64,000 nucleotides of DNA from the NCBI GenBank assembly GCA_008330645.1, contig VLTN01000010.1:248001-312000 (forward strand), given 5' to 3'. A program made the position numbers and the translations under genes. The notes beneath the pieces were generated by a model that worked only from the letters and a program-made list of their open reading frames with translations, was not told the origin of the DNA and ran no database searches. This DNA is from Cafeteria roenbergensis. Lineage: Eukaryota; Sar; Bigyra; Bicosoecida; Cafeteriaceae. Positions 19,287 to 33,335 of the stretch are shown one piece after another; the first letter of the stretch is position 1, and each line of letters starts with the position of its first letter.

Positions 19287-20548
19287 TCAGGCCTTGCCCA
19301 CGAGCATCCAGTTGTAGCCGGACCCGCTGGCGTGCACGGATGCCAGCGTCGACGCGAAGGGGTGCTCCGAGTCGTCCGCCGCGGCGTCCGCGCTCTCGCC
19401 GTAGAACTCGGCGTTGGCCGCCGCCTCCTCGCGAAGGGCCTTCATGAACGACTCGAGGCTGTACGGGTCCTCGTCGGCGTCCGCAGCGCCGCCGTCCACC
19501 ACGGCGGAGCGGCGCACCTTGTCGATGATGGCGTCGAGCGTCATCTCCTCAGCGGACGATGCGGAGACCTGCGAGCGGGGCGAGGGAGAGAGAGGGAGGT
19601 ATGGGGTGGGGGATGCGCATGGCGCAGGGGCGGGTGGGGGGAGGCGGCGAGGCGGCCGGGAAGGTGGATCGACGCGGGCCGACCGCGCCTTGAAGCGCTC
19701 GGCAGAAGCAGCAGCCGCGCACAGCCCGGCCCGCAGACGGACGGCCGTTTTTGGCGCTGCTGGTCTGCCGCCGGGTGGCCGCCGCGACGGCCCTGCCTTC
19801 GGGGCCCACTGCGCGAATCGCGCGGAGCGCGTCTCACGGTGAGGCTGAACGGTCCCAGCTTGGCCATGATCTCCTTCTTGAGGGCGTTGGCCCGGCCCCG
19901 CTTGACAGGAGACACCTTCTCGCCCGCCCAGTGGAGGCAGATCCACTTGATACGGCGGAACTTTCCGGCGCCAAAGCCCATGCGCAGCAGGCCGAAGAGC
20001 ACCTGGTCGTCCGCCATCCACTTGGTCATCTCGTTGACGGACATGGAGCCGGCGTTGTGGAGCTCGAGCGAGTCGGAGGCCTTGAACAGAGCCCAGTTGA
20101 ACGGCCCGAGCGGCTGCTTCACGGCCTCCAGGGCCTTGGCGCCCTCCACCGTGCCCATCTCGGCGGCCGTCTTGCGCGTGGCCGCGCGCTCCAGAGCGTC
20201 AGGCACGCCAGCGGGGCCTGCGGAGGCAATCATTGCCTCATAGTCGGCGGTGAGCTTGGAGATGGAGAAGCCGCCCATGTCGTCCACCTTGATCACCTTG
20301 CTCAGGTGCTCGATGAAGTGCTCGGGGGTGCACTCGTCCGCGCTGTAGAGCTGCACCTCGGCGTGAGAGGCCCCCATGCACTCCTTCACCGCGCCCTTGA
20401 GCGTGTTCAGGCGGCCCTTGGCCACGGCGCCGGCCTTCTCGCCCTGGACGTGCACGAAGACGAGCTTGTTCCGCTTGAAGCTCCCGGATCCGAGAGCAAA
20501 GTTGGCGAGGCCAAACTGGACCGTCGTGTCATCCAGCTTGGTCGCCAT
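19287..20548 (-). CDS. Tandem coactosin/ADF-homology actin-binding protein
   Basis: Exons 19838-20548 and 19287-19568, intron 19569-19837 (GTGAGA...CGCAG, phase 0), 330 residues. ATG at 20548 gives MATKLDD, like the MATK start of coactosins. Two ADF-H/coactosin-like units are seen: the first around VQFGLANFALGSGSFKRNKL to HFIEHLSKVI, the second around QVLFGLLRMGFGAGKF, KWICLHWAGEKVSPVKRGRA and, after the splice, FSLT/VSASSAEEMTLDAII. The GE-x-V-x-x-x-K-R-x-R/A blocks correspond to the segment of coactosin that contacts F-actin. It should bind actin filaments in the cytosol. Both units appear shortened at their N-terminal side compared with vertebrate coactosin, so the fold of unit 1 is less sure. 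Confidence 0.85.
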
Positions 20549-21265
20549 TTCGGTCACGCCACCTGCGCCGCTCAGTCGCAAAGCAGGACGTCAACCGCGT
20601 ACAGGAGCACTGGTGCAAGCATGCCGGCCGGGGATCTGCGCGCACGAGCCGCGGGCGCGCTGCTTGTCTCCCGGCGCCGATCCGCATCGGTGCAACGCTC
20701 CCTCGTCGCAAATGCGAGAGAGCGCGCCCTGGCCCTCCTGGCCGCGCGGGTTCCCGCAACCGCGGGGGCGTGCCATTGGCAGCAAGCAGGGACCGGCCCC
20801 TCCGTGCGCCCGGGGCAAGCAAAAGGACAGAGACCAGGAGGCAACAAGGTCGGCAGCGCGGGCGGACCTTCGGCGGCTCGCTCCTCCGCGGGCCGTGCCA
20901 ACGAGAACGGGGCTCACCGGTGCCGCAACCAACGACTTTGAGCCCCTTGGGGAGGGCCTTCCCCGCGGCCCCTGCCGAGGATGCTCCTGCTGCGGCTGCC
21001 ATGCTTGCCGGCCTGAGAGTGTGCGGTTCGGTGCAGTGTGCCGTGGGCCAATATTTAGACTTTCGGCCAACATGGTTCGATTTGGCGGCGGCCGGAAAGC
21101 CCAGGGCTCAGCTCGTCATTGCGCCAGGCAGAAAGCGGACCACACAGTACACCAGGCTTGGATGCGGGGCAGGTGTCGGTCTCACAGCGGCTGCGTGCTC
21201 GAGGTGGGCGCGCGAGGCGAGGCGGGGCGAATGCGAGAGTGTTGCAGGCAGCGTGGCCAGAAGCC
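20549..21265. other. Intergenic
   Basis: About 0.7 kb upstream of the coactosin gene and downstream of ankyrin gene A. A small A/T-rich spot with CCAAT (gggccaatatttagac, 21046-21061) could be promoter sequence for the coactosin gene, but it is ~500 bases from the ATG. No gene recognised. Confidence 0.5.
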
Positions 21266-22576
21266 TCAGCACCGGCTGGCCAAGGCCTTGAACTCGCTGA
21301 TGCGCTTGGTCACCGCCATGAGCTTCTCGGCGGCATTGGCGGAGGCGGTGGCGTGCGCCGCACGGGCCACCTCCATTTCCCTCTGCTTGGCAGCCAGCAC
21401 AGAGTCCATGTGCTTCTGCTTGGCTGCCAGGGCGGCATGCATCTGCTCCTTCGTGGCCTCCAGGGACGCCTCAAGGTGCTCCACCCTGGCCCTGAGAGCT
21501 TCGGTTTCCGCCCGGTGACTCTTGGTGAGCGTGGCAACGCTGCACCGGGCGACGAACCGACGGAGAGTCTGCTGGGGCCAGTCCGGGAAGCCCCCGACGG
21601 AGCAGTGGACCAGAGCCGGGTTGCCGTTCTGCGCCGCGCGGCCGAGAGCAGCAAGGGCGTGGTCCGATGGGCAAGTGGGAGCGCGCTGGCATGCATCAAG
21701 GCATGGACACTCATGCTGGCACGCTTGGCCAGCGCGACGCCGCACTGCGCCTCACAACGTCCCTGGCGTCCATGTCGGCGCCGTGGTTAAGCAGAACGCT
21801 TCCCACCTCGGCGTGCCCACGGCCAGCGGCCAACATGAGAGGCGACCAGCCCTCCTGCGGAGTCTCCGCAAGCGCGGTGCCGGCGGAGCATGAGCAATCG
21901 CAAGCGCGGTGCCGGCGGAGCATGAGCAATCGCAAGCGCGGTGCCGGCGGAGCATGAGCAATCGCAAGCGCGGTGCCGGCGGAGCATGAGCAATCGCAAG
22001 CGCGGTGCCGGCGGAGCATGAGCAATCGCAAGCGCGGTGCCGGCGGAGCATGAGCAATCGCAAGCGCGGTGCCGGCGGAGCATGAGCAATCGCAAGCGCG
22101 GTGCCGGCGGAGCATGCGCAATCGCAAGTCGGGGTCGGCGGGCGCCGAGGCGGGACGTGCGCCCAGAGCAGAGCAGAGCGTGCCATAGCCGCAACGGGAC
22201 GAACCGTGGTCTGGGCGTTGACGTTCGCCCCATGCTTGATCAGGAGCTCCGCTGCCTCGGCGTGGTTCTTCATGGAAGCGAGAATCAGCGCCGTGCTCGC
22301 ATTCTGCAAGGGCGCGGGGGGGAGAGAGGGGGTGCAGACTATGAGCTGGACGCGGGTGCGCGCGGGAGTGGAAGTCGCTGGGCTCGCCATGTAACAGTTG
22401 GACGTCGTGGTCGCCCGCCCGGGGCTGACGACCATGCCACGCCTCACCTTCATTGGGCTGGTCCAGTCGACGAGAGCGCCCGCGCTCAGCAGCCGCTCAA
22501 TCTCGGCCACGTCCCCGGAGGAGGCAGCAGTGAGAAGCAGCTTCCCCATGTCGTCAGCGGTCAGAGTCATTGCCAT
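21266..22576 (-). CDS. Ankyrin-repeat protein A with C-terminal coiled coil
   Basis: Exons 22448-22576, 22205-22303, 21759-21854 and 21266-21685; all introns in phase 0; 247 residues. Exon 1 encodes an N-terminal ankyrin cap (SGDVAEIERLLSAGALVDW). Exons 2 (99 bases) and 3 (96 bases) each encode exactly one ankyrin repeat: STALILASMKNHAEAAELLI and WSPLMLAAGRGHAEV. Exon 4 holds a degenerate repeat and a helical coiled coil (ETEALRARVEHLEASLEATK and on). The architecture of one repeat per phase-0 exon is the same as in the large ankyrin gene at 25528-30244, and exon 1 is similar, so the two are paralogues. Ankyrin repeats bind other proteins; the partner is unknown. The exon 4 acceptor is inferred from phase and is the weakest junction. 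Confidence 0.75.
21868..22123. repeat. 32-base minisatellite, 8 copies, inside an intron
   Basis: Eight head-to-tail copies of a 32-base unit (containing gcggtgccggcggagcat), all identical until the end of the last copy. They fill most of intron 2 (21855-22204) of ankyrin gene A and stop about 14 bases before its acceptor. Confidence 0.97.
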
Positions 22577-23212
22577 CGCGTCAGGTGTGCCTCCTCGGCC
22601 CTGCCTCTCTGCGCCAGCGAGTGGATGTCGATCGGGCTCTGCCCAGCCGGCTGCCGGCGCCCCGCTCCTCGTGAGGCCGCCCTTCCCCGTGTTGTGGCCG
22701 CCAACCCGCTCCAGGTCCCCGCCTGTGCCCATGGGCCGCAGCTGTGGCCCCGTTGGCGGGCCTCCATTCGATTTCCTCGCAACGATCCTGTCCCGATGCT
22801 TTTGCACCCCAGAGTGGATGTCGCCAGCGGCTCTGCGCGTGCTGCGACAGCCCGCCACGGCCTCGGGCCGGGCCGCCCTCGCACCAGCGGGCTGCGCAGC
22901 CGCATGTGCACAGGGCAGAGACGGGCCAGCATGTGCCAGTGGCAGCGGCAGGGCGCTGGCAAAAGGTGAAATTGGGAGGGTCGTGTGCAAGACCTGTCGC
23001 TTGCACGACGTGCGCAGTTCAAGTGCAGGGTGCGCGCGCGCCTCGGCCGGCCGGCCAGCCCCTTTTTTGTGCGGATTGTTCGGGCAGGCGCGGCTGGTGA
23101 GCCAGGAAGCTGCAGGGCGGTCTGCAAACAGTCCGGACTGAGTTGAAGAAGCCGTGTCGCGACACCCACTCGCAAGCACGAAGCCTCGTTGCGCGAGCCC
23201 CATCTTCATCGG
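22577..23212. other. Intergenic
   Basis: About 0.6 kb between two minus-strand genes. Open frames on both strands have no recognisable content and no convincing start. No RNA gene seen. Confidence 0.5.
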
Positions 23213-24300
23213 TCAGCCCCACCTCTTGGCGTTCAGGCTGCCCGGAGGAGCGGCCGCACTCCTTGCCGCAGCTGCTGGCGCTGGGGCCATTGCATTTCCA
23301 GCGCCAGCGCCAGCGGCATCAGTCGCCTCGCTCTTGAGGCTCTGCTCAAACGCTGCCTCCTCCTTGAGCTCTGCTTCGTCGGCAAGCTCTGCCTGGCGCC
23401 GCTGGGCGCGGGCCTCCTCCGGCAGAGTGCCCTCCGGCCATTCCCACGCCCCCGCCCCTGCCGCGCCTTCCTCAAGGGAGCAGCGGGCGGCCTTGAGCAC
23501 CGCAGCGGATTCAGCCGTGTTGGGGTGGACCGCCCCCGCCCATGAGGCACCGCCGCCGTCACTGCTGCTCGCCGGCTCGCCGCTGCTGCCCGCGCCGATG
23601 GGGAGGCAGAGCCCCGCCATCCCCGCCCCCAGCGAAATAGCGGCGCACGCCGCCGCAGCCGCGGGCATGGTTGCCGCCTCCCGCGTGCGCAAAACCGCGC
23701 GAAGCGCCACCGTGCAGTGCCGTGCCAGCTCGCCGTCCGCGCCCAGCGCCTGCAGCAGCAGCGGCACGAGAGTGGACGGCACCTCGGGACCCTCCGGCAG
23801 GAGGAAGCCGCAGTCGCGCAGCATCCGCAGCTCGGCCTCGCGGATGGCCTGCCTCATCCACGAGGCGAGCCGGCCTGCAGGCGCCAGAGGCGTCGCTGGA
23901 GCGCCGGTGCTTGCCGCTTTGGCCGCCCACAGAGTCCCAGCGACATCGAGGTCCGAACGAGGCTCGTCCGTCGCCTTGCCAGCGCAAAAGAGACTCGCCC
24001 CGGCCACTGCAAAGGAGCACCGCGGGCAAAACGTGGCGGGGCGAAGCAGTAAAACGAGCGCGCAGGCGCTTGGCCCCCGTGCCGCACCCCCCCCGCCTTG
24101 CGCCGCGCCCCCGCACAGCACTCACTAATGTCTGGATCGAACGCGTCGAATGGGCAGGTGCAAGCAAAGCGCTGAAGGATGAGCGCAGCGAGGCAGCACG
24201 TCTCGAACGGCAGCTCAAGCGACGTCCCGCACCCGAACACGAGGTCCGCCGCCGCGGCCCGGAGCTGCCGCACGCCTGCCGACTCGCCGCACGCCTCCAT
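23213..24300 (-). CDS. Cyclin-fold protein (transcriptional cyclin, L/K/T-like)
   Basis: Exons 24126-24300 and 23213-24006, intron 24007-24125 (GTGAGT...TGCAG). The phase-1 join turns the two parts into one cyclin box: LRAAAADLVFGCGTSLELPFE, then ILQRF, then across the splice DPDIMAGASLFCAGKATDEPR, which matches the VALACLFLAGKVEETPR block of cyclins L, K and T. WMRQAIREAELRMLRDCGF follows as the next helix. 322 residues. The N-terminus (ATG at 24300) is short for this family, so an upstream exon may exist. The Ala/Glu-rich tail has no known domain. It should bind a CDK that acts in transcription or splicing; the exact subclass cannot be told. Confidence 0.75.
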
Positions 24301-25067
24301 GCCTCTGCCCGTTGGCGCCGCGCCCGCCCCCCTCCCGGCTCTCTCCCCCCGCCTTCGGCGCGTGAGTGCAAGCAGCATCGAGCTCGGTTGCTTGCCGGGA
24401 ATCAAATATTTCCTCGTCCATGTGTGCCTTGTGCGCCGCCATCTTTCCGCCTTCACCCGCAGCCGCTGCGTCAGCGAGAGCAAAGGCAGGACTTGGCGCA
24501 AGGACCAGGTCTGCAGACTTGCGCCGCCTTCAGCCTCCGCCGCAGCCTCTGGCCATGTTCCCCCTGCTTGACCGAGCATACCCAGCAGCAAGCGGGGGTT
24601 GCAAAGCAGATACCAGTGCTTCATGCAGAGGAGCACTGCCTCCCCGCGCACCGTCATCCTCGCGCTCTGGAAGGTCCAAGTCGTCGTCGTTCCACGATGA
24701 CAGAGGAGCGACGCCCAAAGTTGTCATTCCCGTTGCCCCGCAGCCCCCGAACGCGGGAACTCCCGAGACGGAGCTCGTCCTCGGACTTGCGCTGACCGCA
24801 ATGGTCATGGACGATCCGGTCACCGGGATCTGGACGATCATCCAGCGCGCTGCGTCGGGCCATTCGCTGGGAGGTTCGCGAAGGGTCTGCCTCCGCTCTG
24901 CCCAAACTTGGCACGGACCGGCCCTGACCTGCAGCAGACGCCGGAGCAAACGGGCGGCTTGTCTGATTGGGAAGCGGAAGGCTAGCACGTCCTGGCGAAG
25001 CGGAAACACATCGCTGCAGGGAAGCGCCCGACCCCACCCGGCGAGTGTAGAAAACGCACCGACGCAA
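24301..25067. other. Intergenic, unresolved
   Basis: About 0.77 kb between the cyclin start and the left inverted-repeat arm. Frames around 24700-24870 have fairly high third-position GC on the + strand, but I recognise no domain, start or splice model. It may hold the cyclin promoter or a small unrecognised gene. Confidence 0.35.
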
Positions 25068-25455
25068 TGTTTGTGATGTAAATCTGTTTGTGGTGTCAAT
25101 CTTGTGCTGTCCCTTCGAGCTGACCGGCCGCCTCTCTCAGACACCGATACATCCCCTGGCCCGCTCTGCCTCGCGGCAAGCGCGGGCCATCCGACCCGCT
25201 CACAAGCTCGCCCTCTGGGCGGGCACACCGGTTCGAGCCCGCGTGGGGCTCACCGGCCGCACCCGCACCCGTACCCGCCGCACGCGCGCGCCCCGAGTGG
25301 TGTGTGTCTGCTCGATTCGATCGCGTGACCCCTCCCTCCCGTCCCTCGGGCGACCCCGTCTGGTCCCCGCCGCGCCGAACTTTAGCCACTTAGGTCAACA
25401 CCAGTCCTTCACCAGCAAGCGGCCTCTCAACGTCCACAAAGGTCAGCAGTGTGGG
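25068..25455 (+). repeat. Left arm of a long inverted repeat (upstream region of ankyrin gene B)
   Basis: Aligns with the reverse complement of 30235-30602. Bases 25180-25251 (72 bases) are identical to the complement of 30429-30500; the flanks match with small indels. The left arm carries an extra ~17 bases near 25085-25105. It ends about 70 bases before the ATG of the large ankyrin gene, so it probably contains that gene's promoter and leader. Confidence 0.93.
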
Positions 25456-25527
25456 TGTCGGGCTCTGCAGCGACTTGGTCCACAGCTCCAAACCAGCGCT
25501 CGCCCGCCACCCCGCACATCAGAAAGC

Positions 25528-28500
25528 ATGGCCACCCCTGCTATGGATGACAATGCAATGGCGAGCGCGCTCTGGCAGTCGGCGAAGGCCGGGAACACCG
25601 CCGAGGCCAGCAGGCTGCTCGATGAGGGCACGCCGCTAGACTGGCAAAACGCTGCAGACGTGAGCTCTGAGACTGTAGGCACGCTCCTCACTTGTTGCCG
25701 AGGAAATGGGGCCAGAAACAACGAGGCCGGTGTCTCTGTCCCGCCAATGGGGCTGCTGCACCGAGGATCGCGCGGCAAGATGTGCAGGCCTTCGACCGTG
25801 ATGGCTATGGCGGCAGAGTCATTGCGTGCTGGTTGGCTCTGGGTGGCTTGCGGGAGGTGGCATCAGCGGCATTGTGTGGGGGTCATGGTTGTTGAGAGCA
25901 CGTGGCCTCGCAGGATGGTGCTACGGCGCTTGCTGTGGCTGCGTCCGGTGGGCACAAGGACACGGTGGAGCTGCTGCTGGACCGGGGTGCCGACATGGAA
26001 GCCAAGGATGAGGTGAGTGCGGCGGCCGTGTGTTTACTGCGCGACGGGCCGCGCCGGGCGTCACGGGCGTTTGGGGGGGTGGCGATGGCGATCGCACGTC
26101 GGGGTGTCATGCTCCTGTCGCGGGCCGGCGTGCGAGGCGCTGGCGGAGGTGGGAACGTCGGGAGGGGAGCGATGGTACGACGCGGTGCGGTGACATGCGG
26201 GTCTGCGGCGTCGCAGGAAGGCGCTACGGTACTTGTTCGGGCGGCATTCGGTGGGCACAAGGACACAGTCGAACTGCTGCTGGACCGGGGTGCCGACATG
26301 GAGGCCAAGGCGCGCGTGAGTGCGGCGGGCGTATGTTGCACCGCGAAGGGCCGCGCCGGGCGTCACGGGCGGGCCGGAGGTGCGGCGATGGCGATGATGC
26401 GTCGGGGCGTCGTGCACCGGTCGCGGTCCGGCGTGTGAGGCGGCGCTGGCGGGGGGTGAGAACGTCGGTAGGGGAGCGATGGTGCGACGCGGTGCGGTGA
26501 CATGCGGGCCCGCGGCGTCGCAGAATGGTGCTTCGGCCCTGATGGTGGCGGCATTCGGTGGCCACAAGGACACGGTGGAGCTGCTGCTGGACCGAGGCGC
26601 CGACCTGGAGGCCAAGGATGAGGTGAGTGCGGCGGCCGTGTGTTTGCTGCGCGACGGGCCGCGCCGGGCGTCACGGGCGGGCGGGGGGAAAAGGCATGGC
26701 GGTGACGCGTCGGGGCGTCTTGCTCCTGTCGCGGGCCGGCGTGTGAGGCGGTGCTGGCAGGGGGAGCATGTTGGGAGGAGAGCAACGGTGCGACGCGGTG
26801 CGGTGACATGCGGGCCTGCGGCGTCGCAGAATGGTGCTACGACCCTGAAGGTGGCGGCATTCTGTGGCCACAAGGACACGGTGGAGCTGCTGCTGGACCG
26901 AGGCGCCGACCTGGTGGCCAAGGATGAGGTGAGTGCGGCGGCCGAGTGTTGCATCGCGAAGGGCCGCGCGGGGCGTCACGGGCGGGCCGGAGGTGCGGCG
27001 ATGGCGATGATGCGTCGGGGCGTCGTGCACCTGTCGCGGTCCGGCGTGCGAGGCGGTGCTGGCAGGGGGAGCATGTTGGGAGGAGAGCAACGGTGCGACG
27101 CGGTGCGGTGACATGCGGGCCTGCGGCGTCGCAGAATGGTGCTACGACCCTGATGGTGGCGGCATTCGGTGGCCACAAGGACACGGTGGAGCTGCTGCTG
27201 GACCGAGGCGCCGACCTGGAGGCCAAGGACCGCGTAGGGGCTTTGAACAGTGTCACACTGCGCGACGGCCAGCGGCGGGCGTCACGAACGGGCCGTGGAC
27301 CGTGATGGCGTCGAGGCGTCGGGGCGCCGTGCTCATTCCGCGTGCCGGTGTGGGAGGCCATGCTGGAGGGGCTGTCCGGAAGGCAGCGACGGTACGTCGA
27401 TGTGCGGTGTGGAACGAGCGCGCGTTGTCGCAGAATGGCGTTACTGCGCTTGTTGTGGCTGCATCGTTGGCCTGCAAGGACACGGTGGAGCTGCTGCTGG
27501 ACCGAGGCGCCGACCTGGAGGCCAAGGACCGCGTAGGGGCTTTGAACAGTGTCACACTGCGCGACGGCCAGCGGCGGGCGTCACGAACGGGCCGTGGACC
27601 GTGATGGCGTCGAGGCGTCGGGGCGCCGTGCTCATTCCGCGTGCCGGTGTGGAAGGCCATGCTGGAGGGGCTGTCCGGAAGGCAGCGACGGTACGTCGAT
27701 GTGCGGTGTGGAACGAGCGTGCGTTGTCGCAGGAGGGCGCAACTGCGCTGGTTTGGGCTGCCCGGCGAGGCCGCAAGGACACGGTGGAGCTGCTGCTGGA
27801 CCGAGGCGCCGACCTGGAGGCCAAGGACCGCGTAGGGGCTTTGAACAGTGTCACACTGCGCGACGGCCAGCGGCGGGCGTCACGAACGGGCCGTGGACCG
27901 TGATGGCGTCGAGGCGTCGGGGCGCCGTGCTCATTCCGCGTGCCGGTGTGGGAGGCCATGCTGGAGGGGCTGTCCGGAAGGCAGCGACGGTACGTCGATG
28001 TGCGGTGTGGTACGAGCGTGCGTTGTCGCAGGAGGGCGCAACTGCGCTAGTTTGGGCTGCCCGGGGAGGCCGCAAGGACACGGTGGAGCTGCTGCTGGAC
28101 CGAGGCGCCGACCTGGAGGCCAAGGGCCGCGTAGGGGCTTTGAACAGTGTCACACTGCGCGACGGCCAGCGGCGGGCGTCACGAACGGGCCGTGGACCGT
28201 GATGGCGTCGAGGCGTCGGGGCGCCGTGCTCATTCCGCGTGCCGGTGTGGAAGGCCAAGCTGGAGGGGCTGTGCGGAAGGCAGCGACGGTACATCGATGT
28301 GCGGTGTGGTACGAGCGTGCGTTGTCGCAGTATGACGCTACGGCGCTAGTTTGGGCTGCCCGGGGAGGCCGCAAGGACACGGTGGAGCTGCTGCTGGACC
28401 GAGGCGCCGACCTGGAGGCCAAGGACCGCGTAGGAGCTTTGAACAGTGTCACACTGCGCGACGGCCAGCGGCGGGCGTCACGAACGGGCCGTGGACCGTG

Positions 28501-30244
28501 ATGGCGTCGAGGCGTCGGGGCGCCGTGCTCATTCCGCGTGCCGGTGTGGGAGGCCATGCTGGAGGGGCTGTCCGGAAGGCAGCGACGGTACGTCGATGTG
28601 CGGTGTGGAACGAGCGCGCGTTGTCGCAGGAGGGCGCAACTGCGCTAGTTTGGGGTTGCATACGGTGGCCGCAAGGACACGGTGGAGCTGCTGCTGGACC
28701 GAGGCGCCGACCTGGAGGCCAAGGACCGCGTAGGAGCTTTGAACAGTGTCACACTGCGCGACGGCCAGCGGCGGGTGTCACTGACGGGCCGTGGACCGTG
28801 ATGGCGTCGAGGCGTCGGGGCGCCGTGCTCATTCCGCGTGCCGGTGTGGGAGGCCATGCTGGAGGGGCTGTCCGGAAGGCAGCGACGGTACGTCGATGTG
28901 CGGTGTGGAACGAGCGTGCGTTGTCGCAGGAGGGCGCAACTGCGCTGGTTTGGGCTGCCCGGGGAGGCCGCAAGGACACGGTGGAGCTGCTGCTGGACCG
29001 AGGCGCCGACCTGGATGCCAAGGACCGCGTAGGAGCTTTGAACAGTGTCACACTGCGCGACGGCCAGCGGCGGGCGTCACGAACGGGCCGTGGACCGTGA
29101 TGGCGTCGAGGCGTCGGGGCGCCGTGCTCATTCCGCGTGCCGGTGTGGAAGGCCATGCTGGAGGGGCTGTCCGGAAGGCAGCGACGGTACATCGATGTGC
29201 GGTGTGGTACGAGCGTGCGTTGTCGCAGGAGGGCGCAACTGCGCTGGTTTGGGCTGCCCGGGGAGGCCGCAAGGACACGGTGGAGCTGCTGCTGGACCGA
29301 GGCGCCGACCTGGATGCCAAGGACCGCGTAGGAGCTTTGAACAGTGTCACACTGCGCGACGGCCAGCGGCGGGCGTCACGAACGGGCCGTGGACCGTGAT
29401 GGCGTCGAGGCGTCGGGGCGCCGTGCTCATTCCGCGTGCCGGTGTGGAAGGCCATGCTGGAGGGGCTGTCCGGAAGGCAGCGACGGTACATCGATGTGCG
29501 GTGTGGTACGAGCGTGCGTTGTCGCAGTATGACGCTACGGCGCTAGTTTGGGCTGCCCGGGAAGGCCGCAAGGACACGGTGGAGCTGCTGCTGGACCGAG
29601 GCGCCGACCTGGATGCCAAGGACCGCGTAGGAGCTTTGAACAGTGTCACACTGCGCGACGGCCAGCGGCGGGCGTCACGAACGGGCCGTGGACCGTGATG
29701 GCGTCGAGGCGTCGGGGCGCCGTGCTCATTCCGCGTGCCGGTGTGGAAGGCCATGCTGGAGGGGCTGTCCGGAAGGCAGCGACGGTACATCGATGTGCGG
29801 TGTGGTACGAGCGTGCGTTGTCGCAGGAGGGCGCAACTGCGCTAGTTGGGGTTGCATACGGTGGCCGCAAGGACACGGTGGAGCTGCTGCTGGACCGAGG
29901 CGCCGACCTGGAGGCCAAGAACCGGGTGAGCTGAGCGAGGCTGCTGTTTCGGCATGCGTGGCATGGTGGCCATGAAGGCTCAAGCTTTCGCACCAGGAAT
30001 GGGGATGGTGGCCAAGACCTTTGTTCGTTAAGACCGGTTCGCTGTGCGTCCTGCTCACTTCGACAACGCTTGTCATTTTGGTGTCACCTTGAACCGGTTG
30101 GGGCTCTCCACTTCGCAGGCTGGCAAGGTCGCACTTGACATGCACGGAGCCAAATTATGTGCCAGTGTGCTGCAGGGTGCAGAGCAGATCCAGCGATGGC
30201 ACCGCCGCCGCATCTTGGCAATGTGGGCGCACTCTGTCTGCTGA
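25528..30244 (+). CDS. Modular ankyrin-repeat gene B, one 33-residue repeat per exon
   Basis: Sixteen exons, all introns phase 0. Exon 1 (25528-25659) encodes an N-terminal cap ending PLDWQNAAD. Exons 2-15 each encode one ankyrin repeat, e.g. GATALAVAASGGHKDTVELL: 25914-26012, 26217-26315, 26524-26622, 26830-26928, 27135-27233, 27434-27532, 27733-27831, 28032-28130, 28331-28429, 28630-28729, 28930-29028, 29229-29327, 29528-29626, 29827-29925. Exon 16 (30119-30244) adds a 41-residue tail ending WAHSVC and TGA. Every repeat exon is 99 bases except exon 11 (28630-28729), which is 100 because of an extra T. Including it shifts the frame and meets TGA at the start of exon 14; skipping it keeps the frame (514 residues). 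Ankyrin repeats bind proteins; the partner is unknown. No membrane or signal segment is seen. Confidence 0.85.
27135..29925 (+). repeat. Tandem array of 299-base exon+intron units
   Basis: Units start at 27135, 27434, 27733, 28032, 28331, 28630, 28930, 29229, 29528 and 29827. Each is a 99-base ankyrin exon plus a 200-base intron (gtaggggc or gtaggagc ... gtcgcag) that is nearly identical from copy to copy. The unit at 28630 is 300 bases. Exons 8-11 and 12-15 show the same order of variants (two EGATALVWAAR types, then YDATALVW, then the type with gcatacggtggc), so a four-unit block was probably duplicated. Introns 2-5 (204-208 bases, gtgagtgcggcgg) are an older, different intron type. Confidence 0.97.
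28630..28729 (+). pseudogene. 100-base ankyrin exon with +1 insertion
   Basis: Reads gctagtttggggttgcatac where exon 15 reads gctagttggggttgcatac. The extra T breaks the ankyrin frame after GATALVW. The shifted frame stays open through exons 12 and 13 and stops at TGA in exon 14 (CTA TGA). It may be a damaged or skipped exon, or a sequencing error. Confidence 0.85.
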
Positions 30245-30602
30245 GCTGAATGGACGTTGAGAGGCTGTGTGCAGGTGAATGACGGATGCTGACCTAAATG
30301 GCTCAAGCTCGGCGCGGCGGGGACCACACGGGGTCGCCCGAGGGAGGGGAGGGAGGGTCACGCGATCGAATCGAGCAGACACACACCACTGGGGGCGCTT
30401 GCGTGCGGCGGGTACGGGTACGGCCGGCGAGCCCCACGCGGGCTCGAACCGGTGTGCCCGCCCAGAGGGCGAGCTTGTGAGCGGGTCGGATGGCCCGCGC
30501 CTGCCGTGAGGCAGAGCGGGCCCGGGGTTGTCTCGGTGTCTGAGGGAGGCGGCCGGTCAGCTCGAAGGGACAGCAGCACAAGATTTACAACACAAACATG
30601 CC
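30235..30602 (-). repeat. Right arm of the long inverted repeat
   Basis: Reverse-complement copy of 25068-25455, lying just past the last ankyrin exon and overlapping its final ten bases. It points leftwards, so any promoter activity it kept would run antisense through the ankyrin array. I see no open frame or transposase in it. Confidence 0.93.
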
Positions 30603-31012
30603 TGCCGTCGGCCACACAACTTGGACTGATATTTCCGCGCAACGCCTCGAGCGCAGCGTGAGAGATCGCGGTCGTGCGCCCCGAAGCGGCCCGGGTGGGT
30701 CGGGGCTGGGCTCGGCCGCAGAGCGCACGTGGGCTCGCGAACCGGGTGCATGGGCCGCTCGACGCTGCCCGGCCGGGCGGGCGTGGCGTGGCGTGTGCGC
30801 AACCCGCGAAGCGCGGGCGATTTGGGCCGATCCGGCGAATGCGCAAGGCTGCGGCTTTGCTGGCTCGACCATGGCACGCGCAGCGAGGTCGGCGAGAGCG
30901 ATCGCAATGGCACAGACCCAACGCATGCGCAGCGCCGCTGCCATCGTCGCCATGCTGCCGAAGCAGCAGCCCGCAAGCCGCATGGCCACCGCTGCGGGTC
31001 GCGCGTGGCCGG
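30603..31012. other. Intergenic
   Basis: About 0.4 kb between the right inverted-repeat arm and the 3' end of the glycoside-hydrolase-like gene. Open frames on both strands have no recognisable content. Confidence 0.5.
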
Positions 31013-33335
31013 TCACACTGGGTTCCCGCTCGCGGGCGACTGTCCGCCGATGCTCCTCAGCCCGCTCGCGCCGCCGACGGCGGATGCATCGCTGTTACCG
31101 GTCTGCTGGACGGTGGCCGCGCCTGTTTGGGTCGGTCCGACAGCGCTGGGCGCGCTCCTGCCAGCCCAGTGGGCCAGCCCCACCTGCTTCATGGCCCAGG
31201 CCGCCCCGCCGAGGAGGAGGGCCGCCCCCACCACGGCTCCGATGACGACGAAGGCCGACACGCCACCGTCATCGGCGGGCTGGGCTTCATCGTCGCCGGT
31301 GCCGATGCTGCCGGTCGCGGCGCCCGATGCGGTGGGCGAAGTGGTGGGGCTGGCGGTGGAGGTCGGGGAGGCTGTGACCGTTGGGGAGGTGGTGATCGAA
31401 GGCGAGGGCGTGGACGTCGGCGAGGCCGTGGATGTCGGCGATGCTGTGGATGTGTACCCGCTGGCGCCACGCGCATGAGCTCCCATGAGCGGATGCGTGT
31501 TCGCGAGGGGCGGGAGAGGAGGCAAGCCTGCTGCGACGTGCCCCACGACCCGACGCTGCGCCGTCCGCTCAGTCTTGCAGTCAGCACGTCACGAAGTCAC
31601 GGAGACCCTCCGTTCGCGGCACCGCGGCCGTCGGCAGAGCGATGGGCAAGTCGGAGCCCGGGACGGTCGTCCCGAAGACCCGCTGCATCTCCCGCTCCGT
31701 GACCGCGCGGAAGCGGTCGAGCTTGGTGGCGCCGCCCGTGTCCGGCAACGCGGCCAGCGCCTCGCCCGTGAGGTCCCCGACGCCACCCAGGAAGCCCAGC
31801 ACCGTGGAGGACTTGCTGTCCCACGTGGCCACGGGAGCGATCTCTGTGCCGTTCACGTTGCAGGCTGCAGTGGACCCCAGCGGCCCTTGCATGGCCGTCG
31901 CGGCCAGAGTGTGGACGTACCACACCGCGGCCTCCCTAGGCGCCACGAGGGCCATGGCCATTGCCCCGTAGGGCGTGACCACGTCGCGGCGCTGGATGGG
32001 CTGCGAGGCCAGTGCGGCAATGCCCGCGGCGCTAATGTACCCGGGAATCACGGGCGGAAGCAGGTCGGAGGGCGGCACCGCAGCGACGTCCGTGACGCTT
32101 GCAAACAGGCCGGGGACGCGGCGCGCCGCCGAGTCGGCGGCCCTGGCCACCTCGCACGCACGCAAAACCTTGGCCGACGTTGGAACCAGCGAGGCGTCGG
32201 TGTACGGCAGGTAGAGCCCCTTCATCTGCTCGTGGGCCGAAAACCAAAAGCCGCGCTGCACCGAGACGGTGTCCGGGGCAGCAGCGCCCTGGGCGGCCAG
32301 CTGGCTCGGCATGCGGTAGGGCACGGCCGCCAGCTGGGGGCGCTTGGCCAGCCACAGGTCCTCGCGCTCCGCTGCGTCCAGGCCGGTCAGCAGGTCCAGC
32401 ACCCAGGTGAAGAGCTCGCCCTCGTACGGGTCGTCCAGCCGCCCCGAGCCCGAGACGGGGGACTGTCCGGGCGGCAGGCTCACGTTGGCGATGGTCGTGA
32501 CGGCAAATACTGCGCCGCGGGACTCGGCGCCGCCCCAGAAGAGCGTGCGCGCGGTGGCTGCCATCGCTGACCACACCGCCTCGAGCCGCGCCGCCAGCGA
32601 CTCTGCCTCTGTTGCCGCCGATTCAAAGCCAGGCGCCTCGGAAGCAGCGCCCGCGAGGCGCCTTGCTGCCTGGCCGGCGGCCACGACACCCCAGAACAGC
32701 TCTCCGTTGTCCAGGGCGGGGACGCGGTTTTCCCACCCCTGCAGCAGCCCCATGGAGCCGCTGTTGTTGGCCGGCACGCTGAACCAAGGCAGGTACCCAC
32801 CGAACCCGGGGAAGCTGGAGTTGAAGCGAGCGAACGAGTCCAGCTTCGCGCCAAGCGTGGCCACCCAGTACCCGGCGGCCTGGGCGGTCCGGCGCCTGCT
32901 TCCGCTCGACGGCCACCCGCACAGGGCCCGCAGCAGTTCCTTCCGCGCCAGTTGCAGCCCCGGGTCTGACGCCGCCGAGGCTCGTGGCCTTCCGCCCAGC
33001 GCCTCGGCGGCGTCAGCAATGCACCGCGCCGCCAAGGCTAGGTGGAAGCCCTCCTTGGAGGCCGCGGAAAAGTCGTGGAGCTGCGCTGCGGTTCCTGTGG
33101 TGTAGTTGAGCACGGCACCATCGCGGGTGACGCCGAGCCCGGACGACACGCCGACCCCACGAACGAAGGGCGCCTCGAACTCTCCAACCAAGCCGAACAC
33201 GCGGCCAAGCTCTGGGCTTCCGGGGTCGAGCAGCGCGCTGGCGTTCACGGCCGGTGCCCACCTGCAAGTGCTCCAGGCTGCCGTGGCCGACGCAGCGGCG
33301 CAGGCGAGCCCAGCCAGCGCGTGCTTCAAGCCCAT
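31013..33335 (-). CDS. Secreted, membrane-anchored glycoside-hydrolase-like protein (GH144/glycoamylase-like)
   Basis: Exons 31588-33335 and 31013-31460, intron 31461-31587; lengths sum to 732 codons, 731 residues. ATG at 33335 gives a signal peptide (MGLKHALAGLACAAASATAA). The ectodomain has GGYLPWFSVPANNSGSMGLL, ENRVPALDNGELFWGVVAA, RGFWFSAHEQMKGLYLPYTD and VVTPYGAMAMALVAPREAAV, the layout of the glycoamylase-type (alpha/alpha)6 family that includes GH144 beta-1,2-glucanases. After the splice comes a Ser/Thr/Pro repeat linker (TASPTST units), one membrane helix (VVIGAVVGAALLLGGAAWAM) and a ~60-residue tail. It is thus a type I cell-surface protein, probably acting on an external polysaccharide. 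The donor (GTGCTG) is weak; without the splice the protein would end at 31581 as a secreted form. Confidence 0.72.

What the first reader, a model, noticed from the sequence alone, without database searches (positions are those of the whole stretch)
25528..30244. Ankyrin gene built from interchangeable one-repeat exons
Exons 2-15 each encode exactly one 33-residue ankyrin repeat (99 bases) and every intron is phase 0. Any exon can therefore be skipped, duplicated or reordered without losing the frame. The design would let one gene produce many repeat lengths by alternative splicing or by unequal crossing over, and so many binding surfaces. The paralogue at 21266-22576 uses the same one-repeat-per-exon plan.
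Basis: partly seen in the sequence, partly recalled or inferred. Interest (0 to 1): 0.85.

Follow-up and report, generated by a model that had tools for sequence, protein, structure and literature searches.

The report
Protist ankyrin genes, one repeat per exon
A single-celled marine predator appears to carry a large family of genes whose protein-binding repeats each sit in their own exon, and in most of them the presumed binding surfaces differ more than the introns beside them, which suggests an evolving set of binding proteins whose targets are unknown.

Summary
The gene at 25528-30244 is real in outline: N-cap exon, 14 one-repeat ankyrin exons, C-cap exon, phase-0 boundaries. Thirteen of 14 repeat exons are exactly 99 nt; one (28630-28729) is 100 nt here, without the extra base in a second haplotype contig. 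The genome matches Cafeteria burkhardae BVI by size and contig number (inferred). The gene belongs to a family: 106 N-cap matches, 46 of them close. In 17 stretches 200 of 205 repeat anchors are exact AG|99|GT exons, against 0 of 43 in intronless ankyrin genes. Units duplicate and recombine in place. Changes at presumed ligand-contact codons exceed intron divergence in 14 of 14 arrays, with bootstrap support in 13; but in 3 of 14, this gene included, fourfold sites of the same exon half vary more, and intronless arrays show the same surface pattern. Haplotypes show little clean length difference; alternative splicing could not be tested. Inverted copies of a 365-bp repeat flank the gene. Closest known: 90-bp-exon LRR arrays of Tetrahymena, 72-bp-exon LRR genes of brown algae. 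New variant of a known kind.

The parts
25528..25659 (+). Exon 1: N-terminal cap (44 aa, MATPAMDD...), donor GTGAGC
   Evidence: 106 matches to a family N-cap in the genome
25914..26012 (+). Repeat exon 1, 99 nt, AG/GT
26217..26315 (+). Repeat exon 2, 99 nt, AG/GT
26524..26622 (+). Repeat exon 3, 99 nt, AG/GT
26830..26928 (+). Repeat exon 4, 99 nt, AG/GT
27135..27233 (+). Repeat exon 5, 99 nt; type-A exon followed by type-B intron (chimaeric unit)
27434..27532 (+). Repeat exon 6, 99 nt, AG/GT
27733..27831 (+). Repeat exon 7, 99 nt, AG/GT
28032..28130 (+). Repeat exon 8, 99 nt, AG/GT
28331..28429 (+). Repeat exon 9, 99 nt, AG/GT
28630..28729 (+). Repeat exon 10, 100 nt as assembled (one extra base, frameshift)
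28930..29028 (+). Repeat exon 11, 99 nt; identical to exon 12 here, a different repeat type in haplotype C129
29229..29327 (+). Repeat exon 12, 99 nt, AG/GT
29528..29626 (+). Repeat exon 13, 99 nt, AG/GT
29827..29925 (+). Repeat exon 14, 99 nt, AG/GT
30119..30244 (+). Last exon: C-terminal cap with conserved QRWHRR motif, and stop
   Evidence: 99 matches to a family C-cap
25085..25449 (+). 365-bp dispersed repeat, left copy, 78 bp before the ATG
30238..30598 (-). 365-bp dispersed repeat, right inverted copy, overlapping the last 7 bases of the gene
21266..22576 (-). Divergent paralogue: N-cap exon 22576-22448, two 99-nt one-repeat exons (22303-22205, 21854-21756), tail exon 21628-21266

Best explanation
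This is one member of a large family of capped ankyrin proteins in a bicosoecid flagellate (very probably Cafeteria burkhardae BVI); they look soluble (no signal peptide or membrane segment is evident by eye; no predictor was run). Each ankyrin repeat is one 99-nt, phase-0 exon. Arrays grow and are rewritten by unequal exchange and gene conversion between roughly 300-bp exon+intron units (shown by the unit patterns), while selection keeps the structural codons. Across the family, selection probably also favours change at codons of the presumed ligand-contact face (suggested for most arrays, not shown for this gene on its own). I infer that the proteins form an evolving set of binding modules, one binding surface per gene and allele, most likely for intracellular recognition of fast-changing partners such as viruses, endogenous elements or prey molecules. 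The partner is a guess. Diversity arises mainly over generations in the DNA; a contribution from alternative splicing is possible and untested.
For: Family scale: 106 N-cap and 99 C-cap matches, 65 of 106 N-caps with a same-strand C-cap within 12 kb, spans 550-9582 bp. Exact AG|99|GT at 200 of 205 anchors in 17 stretches. Coding constraint: uncorrected dN at the remaining codons is 0.16-0.57 of dS in 16 of 16 listed arrays, two of which overlap or duplicate others. Diversification: first- and second-base differences at six ligand-face codons exceed intron divergence in 14 of 14 arrays, bootstrap interval above zero in 13 (C88 fails); in 11 of 14 fewer than 1% of random six-codon sets do as well (not in C88, C60, C61). 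In-place rewriting: intron blocks 1-4 and 5-13, chimaeric unit 5, identical units 11 and 12. Between haplotypes, 14 substitutions in 560 sites of exon codons 1-15 against 12 in 3038 other array sites (Fisher p 6.6e-6, not independent because they cluster; scrambled stretch left out). Ankyrin-domain genes as a class are enriched among C. burkhardae genes up in stationary phase (PMC7852580 Table 2, section 13 read).
Against: No transcript was available; splicing, expression and translation of this gene are inferred. Both haplotypes carry single-base indels in exons: errors or decay. Fourfold sites of conserved codons in the first half of the exon also vary more than introns (0.26 against 0.15 on average), and in 3 of 14 arrays (this gene 0.50 against 0.31, C60, C61) they vary more than the ligand-face codons; measured against fourfold sites of the whole exon this gene's excess is only 1.14-fold, the lowest of 14. 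So part of the diversity may be old variation that escaped homogenisation. Ankyrin repeats vary at these positions in general (recalled), and intronless arrays of this genome do too. Eight of 14 arrays hold no unit pair at 97% identity or more, so turnover is not recent everywhere. No target or effector domain is known.
Confidence: 0.55

Rival explanations
1. One reading: the phase-0 one-repeat exons serve to make many isoforms from one gene by alternative splicing (exon skipping changes repeat number without losing frame).
For: Repeat exons are symmetric phase-0 99-mers at 200 of 205 anchors. Nine of this gene's 14 repeat exons (5-13) are followed by GTAGGG or GTAGGA donors; none of the other 16 stretches tallied has these donors (the 8 counted are all from this gene; the tenth exon was not tallied), and GTGAGT is commonest (123 of 200); weak donors could favour skipping. 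Brown algal LRR exons of the same design are alternatively spliced (PMC11378527, sections 11 and 15 read).
Against: No RNA evidence. Family-wide donors and acceptors are uniform, which points to constitutive splicing in most genes. Uniform phase follows automatically from tandem duplication of one exon+intron unit.
Confidence: 0.15
2. Largely neutral expansion: the arrays are recombination-prone satellite-like DNA with ankyrin exons; many copies are dead, and surface diversity is relaxed constraint plus old variation.
For: Frameshifts in both haplotypes here; a copy on C39/C107 with no C-cap in the 4 kb held and one exon fewer in one haplotype; in this gene and two other arrays fourfold sites of the same exon half vary more than the ligand face.
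Against: Structural codons are conserved (dN rest/dS 0.16-0.57); ligand-face change exceeds intron divergence in 14 of 14 arrays, with bootstrap support in 13; splice sites kept at 200 of 205 anchors.
Confidence: 0.2
3. The gene is cargo of, or was spread by, a mobile unit whose ends are the 365-bp repeat.
For: Inverted copies flank this gene (and its haplotype C129) and the C8:734361 gene; 24 of the 40 best copies lie within 2 kb of a cap exon against 0.8 expected; 12 of them lie downstream of a C-cap in opposite orientation (13 weaker rows of the 53 listed were not used).
Against: I saw no target-site duplication by eye in the copies aligned; of 25 C-caps in held loci (my hand count, a sample biased because some loci were fetched for the repeat, with some haplotype copies counted apart) 12 have a copy within 200 bp downstream and 13 do not; tandem gene duplication would carry a 3' copy along; no reverse transcriptase or tyrosine recombinase match lies between the direct pairs on C62 and C36.
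Confidence: 0.1

Closest known systems
Brown algal LRR-ROCO (and NB-TPR) exon-shuffling genes (PMC11378527, abstract and sections 11 and 15 read; Zambounis 2012 only as cited there)
   Same: One repeat per exon of fixed length, uniform phase, tandem exon duplication, diversifying selection on the ligand face, large family in a stramenopile.
   Different: LRR (TPR), 72-bp exons in phase 2, with a ROC-COR GTPase domain; here ankyrin, 99 nt, phase 0, no other domain accepted in the parts scanned.
Tetrahymena 90-bp-exon LRR arrays (PMC6564038, passages read)
   Same: Tens of thousands of exons of one exact length, uniform phase, young gene families; link with a retroelement and with subtelomeres reported there.
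   Different: LRR, 90 bp, phase 2 in ciliates; here ankyrin, 99 nt, phase 0, and the contig-end clustering may be an assembly effect.
DARPin libraries (PMC8683736, passages read)
   Same: N-cap + n x 33-residue modules + C-cap, variation on a fixed framework; engineered DARPins are among the best PDB matches.
   Different: Engineered; here natural, with extra variable positions (7, 8, 15, 32). The list of randomised DARPin positions used as test set is recalled; the passages seen give no numbers.
Ankyrin 'accordion' of Bodo saltans virus (PMC5871332, passages read)
   Same: Large, recently duplicated ankyrin families, linked there to arms races around a flagellate.
   Different: Viral genes; that they lack introns is presumed, not read.
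Animal ankyrin genes with 99-nt repeat exons (recalled; searches gave no paper on it that I recognised)
   Same: Some repeats coded by single 99-nt exons (recalled).
   Different: Old, fixed repeat sets in a few genes (recalled).

Membership tests
Ankyrin-repeat proteins | 33-residue repeats matching Pfam Ank models above cut-off | tested here: met
   PF12796 233.8 bits, PF00023 226.9 bits on N-cap plus 9 repeats
One-repeat-per-exon symmetric-exon array genes (general kind) | Runs of exons of one exact length, each one repeat, same phase on both sides | tested here: met
   200 of 205 anchors AG|99|GT; 13 of 14 in this gene
One-repeat-per-exon symmetric-exon array genes (general kind) | Exons joined in transcripts | not testable with these tools
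   No RNA data held
Brown algal LRR-ROCO genes | 72-bp phase-2 LRR exons and ROC-COR domain | tested here: not met
   99-nt phase-0 ankyrin exons; no ROC or COR match in N-cap, 9 repeats and two C-caps scanned
Tetrahymena 90-bp LRR genes | Exactly 90-bp exons, phase-2 introns, LRR | tested here: not met
Immune-type receptor repertoire | Diversifying selection on the ligand face | tested here: inconclusive
   14 of 14 arrays above intron divergence, 13 with bootstrap support, but fourfold sites of the same exon half exceed the face in 3 of 14, this gene included, and intronless arrays behave alike
Immune-type receptor repertoire | Binding of, or response to, a parasite or virus | not testable with these tools
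   No binding or infection expression data
TIR transposon | Inverted terminal repeats with target-site duplication | tested here: inconclusive
   Inverted repeats present; no duplication seen by eye in the copies aligned

The most novel reading that the evidence does not exclude
A unicellular predator and giant-virus host keeps a genome-encoded, DARPin-like library: up to about a hundred capped ankyrin proteins whose one-repeat exons are shuffled, converted and possibly alternatively spliced, with the ligand face under diversifying selection, serving as an intracellular recognition system against viruses or other invaders.
Probability: 0.2. Interest if true: 0.9.

Novelty: new variant of a known kind. 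Interest (0 to 1): 0.6.

Why it matters
Exon-by-repeat arrays with diversified faces are reported for LRR and TPR genes in brown algae and for LRR genes in a ciliate (papers seen here); finding the same plan for ankyrin repeats in a distant stramenopile suggests that protists repeatedly arrive at modular binding repertoires. Cafeteria is a culture model for giant viruses and virophages with four sequenced strains, so the idea that such repertoires are recognition systems becomes directly testable. I found no paper describing this family in searches, and the word ankyrin is absent from the main text held of PMC6972860 and PMC8547959.

Tried and rejected
Identity of the organism by rRNA: the SSU search did not complete three times; 5.8S gave no match; absence of light-harvesting matches plus assembly size and contig number gave the inference instead. 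tRNA or Rfam origin of the 365-bp repeat: no tRNA in the window; two weak Rfam matches below gathering score in 20000-32000, neither on the repeat. Retroelement between direct pairs of that repeat: no match. Subtelomeric location: 36 of 46 close N-caps lie within 25 kb of a contig end against about 18% of the genome (contig lengths partly bracketed or interpolated), but 4 of 9 contig ends looked at lie inside arrays and no telomere repeats were seen, so assembly breaks may explain it. A BLAST self-comparison for block duplications missed known duplicates, probably because overlapping hits are dropped; replaced. Viral relatives: 6 stretches matched a peptide pattern, none confirmed. Pfam also lists PF03496 (an ADP-ribosyltransferase family) at 31.7 bits, above its cut-off of 23.4, but with no single stretch passing; I take it for summed weak matches to repeats.

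Choices that affect counts: C129 and the overlapping C74 piece were left out; exons lacking AG before or GT/GC after, or with stops, were left out and of the counts built on it. The anchors come from a strict helix motif and exclude the older clade, which was looked at; its 17 stretches lie at 16 places (two adjoin on C74; no exon counted twice). The hypervariable set was chosen from the same data; one search uses a set recalled from DARPin design, and its random-codon check used 40 sampled pairs in arrays of 12 or more units. N-cap matches with weak scores may be plain ankyrin repeats, and uncollapsed haplotypes inflate gene counts. Of 53 repeat-element rows, 40 were used.
Full report
WHAT IS THERE. 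The window is G000:C10:248001-312000 of a 36.30-Mb, 167-contig genome; the window has 71% GC and the other loci held 68%. A search for light-harvesting proteins found none. Cafeteria roenbergensis (now burkhardae) strain BVI is published at 36.33 Mb, 170 contigs, 70.1% GC (PMC6972860, first part and Table 3 read). I infer that the window comes from that strain's assembly or a near copy of it.

The gene at 25528-30244 has an N-cap exon of 132 nt, 14 repeat exons and a C-cap exon. Thirteen repeat exons are exactly 99 nt with AG before and GT after; the tenth has one extra base. Pfam finds ankyrin repeats in the N-cap plus nine repeats scanned; the best PDB matches are ankyrins and engineered DARPins. 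With 99 nt in every repeat exon the protein would have 547 residues; as assembled the frame is lost in the tenth repeat.

A SECOND HAPLOTYPE. Contig C129 (22.8 kb) is collinear with window 18066-40968 at 98.5-99.2% identity. It keeps the unit order, lacks the extra base of the tenth exon, has single-base insertions in the N-cap exon and the fourth repeat exon, and holds a scrambled stretch of about 230 bp in place of about 400 bp, which looks like an assembly fault. Outside that stretch, substitutions crowd into exon codons 1-15: 14 of 560 sites against 1 of 648 in codons 16-33 and 11 of 2390 in introns. They cluster: six turn the eleventh unit's exon into another repeat type, five rewrite the fourteenth. 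So repeats are being rewritten, probably by conversion, without a clean change in number. Other haplotype-like sets: C107/C36/C114 are collinear at 96-99% and keep their spacing where exons are recognised; C39 has one exon more than C107, in a copy with no C-cap in the 4 kb held; the first two gene pairs of C63/C78 (92.6% alike, so perhaps not haplotypes) keep their spans, while beyond them C63 has four cap pairs where C78 has three.

HOW THE ARRAY GREW. Introns fall into two blocks: 1-4 (87-92% alike) and 5-13 (96-100% alike), with 71-78% between blocks. Unit 5 has a block-A exon and a block-B intron. Units 11 and 12 are identical; exons 8, 9, 10 match 12, 13, 14 at 97-98%. This is the pattern of unequal exchange of one or several 299-bp units. 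Across 14 arrays, 6 contain a unit pair at 97% identity or more and 8 do not.

A GENE FAMILY. The array has 68 matches in the genome, itself included, a lower bound. A family N-cap has 106 matches at E 0.01 or better, 46 of them below 1e-10; a C-cap has 99; 65 of 106 N-caps have a same-strand C-cap within 12 kb. Complete genes among those held carry 6 to 21 repeat exons. In 17 stretches at 16 places, 200 of 205 helix-motif anchors have AG and GT exactly 99 nt apart; of seven intronless loci given as control, six held anchors, and 0 of 43 have both. A looser scan of the older clade (C78, C63, C94, C51) shows the same plan: 17 of 24 anchors pass, and the 7 that fail are N-caps by their sequence. 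So the plan belongs to the family, not to this gene.

SELECTION. Residue variety peaks at positions 1, 3, 7, 8, 11, 12, 15, 32 and 33 of the repeat (163 distinct repeats among 177). Five of these (1, 3, 11, 12, 33) are positions randomised in DARPins, as I recall them. For a test set taken from that recollection (1, 3, 11, 12, 31, 33), first- and second-base differences within arrays average 0.38, against 0.15 in the introns of the same arrays, 0.26 at fourfold sites of conserved codons in the first half of the exon, and 0.11 at fourfold sites in the second half. The excess over introns is present in 14 of 14 arrays and has a bootstrap interval above zero in 13; C88 fails. Three results stand against a simple reading. 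First, in 3 of 14 arrays, this gene (0.50 against 0.31), C60 and C61, the fourfold sites of the first half vary more than the ligand-face codons. Second, against fourfold sites of the whole exon the excess ranges from 1.14-fold in this gene, the lowest, to 7.7-fold in C55. Third, intronless ankyrin arrays here show the same concentration, 2.5-3.8 times the fourfold rate in six of six loci. So diversifying selection is suggested for the family, best in C55, C20, C43 and C88 by the fourfold yardstick, and is not shown for this gene alone; and the exon plan is not required for surface diversity.

FLANKS. The gene lies between inverted copies of a 365-bp repeat (25085-25449 and 30238-30598, 89% alike). 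The repeat has sharp ends. Of 53 rows found I used the 40 best: 24 lie within 2 kb of a cap exon, where 0.8 would be expected. In the tandem clusters held (C63, C78) it follows the C-cap by 17-72 bp in 8 of 8 cases, pointing towards the gene; some copies are partial and two of the genes on C78 may be counterparts of two on C63. One other gene (C8:734361) has copies on both sides. Its nature is open: a shared 3' region duplicated with the genes is the simplest reading, a mobile unit the bolder one.

FUNCTION. The caps and repeats read make up the whole predicted protein; beyond ankyrin-type families I accept no Pfam match in the stretches scanned (one odd listing is told under Tried and rejected). 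The architecture, N-cap + n x 33 + C-cap with a varied face, is that of a binding module. What they bind is unknown. Ankyrin-domain genes as a class are enriched among C. burkhardae genes raised in stationary phase (log2 0.75, adjusted p 0.026; PMC7852580 section 13 read), which shows expression of the class, not of this gene. Recognition of viruses, endogenous elements or prey is my inference from the variation pattern.

COMPARISON. Brown algal ROCO genes have 72-bp phase-2 LRR exons, alternative splicing and positively selected ligand-face sites (PMC11378527, abstract and sections 11 and 15). Tetrahymena has tens of thousands of 90-bp phase-2 LRR exons (PMC6564038, passages). This family works like them, but is not a member of either. 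Searches of the literature held gave no paper on an ankyrin version that I recognised. Of the two papers holding both Cafeteria burkhardae and ankyrin, one was seen by a passage and one section, the other only in the listing; neither was seen to describe this family. Animal ankyrin genes with 99-nt exons are recalled only.

VERDICT. Observation right but for one exon; interpretation half right: duplication and exchange are visible, splicing variety is untested, and length variation between haplotypes is not clearly seen. The wider finding, a family of up to about a hundred capped ankyrin genes in a giant-virus host, built like a natural binder library, is more interesting than the single gene.

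Noticed in passing
window 21867-22128: A 32-bp minisatellite (8.2 copies, 99% matches) sits in the intron between the two repeat exons of the neighbouring paralogue.
   Followed up: partly
window 25085-25449 and 30238-30598; 40 best places in the genome: 365-bp dispersed repeat with sharp ends, strongly associated with cap exons of this gene family.
   Followed up: partly
G000 contig ends: Many of the 65 reverse-transcriptase matches seem to lie near contig ends, some at the same ends that carry ankyrin arrays; judged by eye, not counted.
   Followed up: no
L001-L005, L036 (C20, C28, C126, C162, C82): A second ankyrin class without introns, mostly in 102-nt steps, shows similar surface-position diversity.
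   Followed up: partly
L051 2254-2588 and 4987-5321 (C107), L053 (C36): Another ankyrin locus holds a different inverted repeat pair, 335 bp and 99% alike on C107.
   Followed up: no
window 27234-29826 introns: The introns after units 5-13 start GTAGGG or GTAGGA; the 8 such donors counted are all from this gene, none from the other 16 stretches.
   Followed up: partly
C63:174600-191908 and C78:433-14368: Two similar tandem clusters of family genes differ in gene number (four against three N-to-C cap pairs).
   Followed up: no
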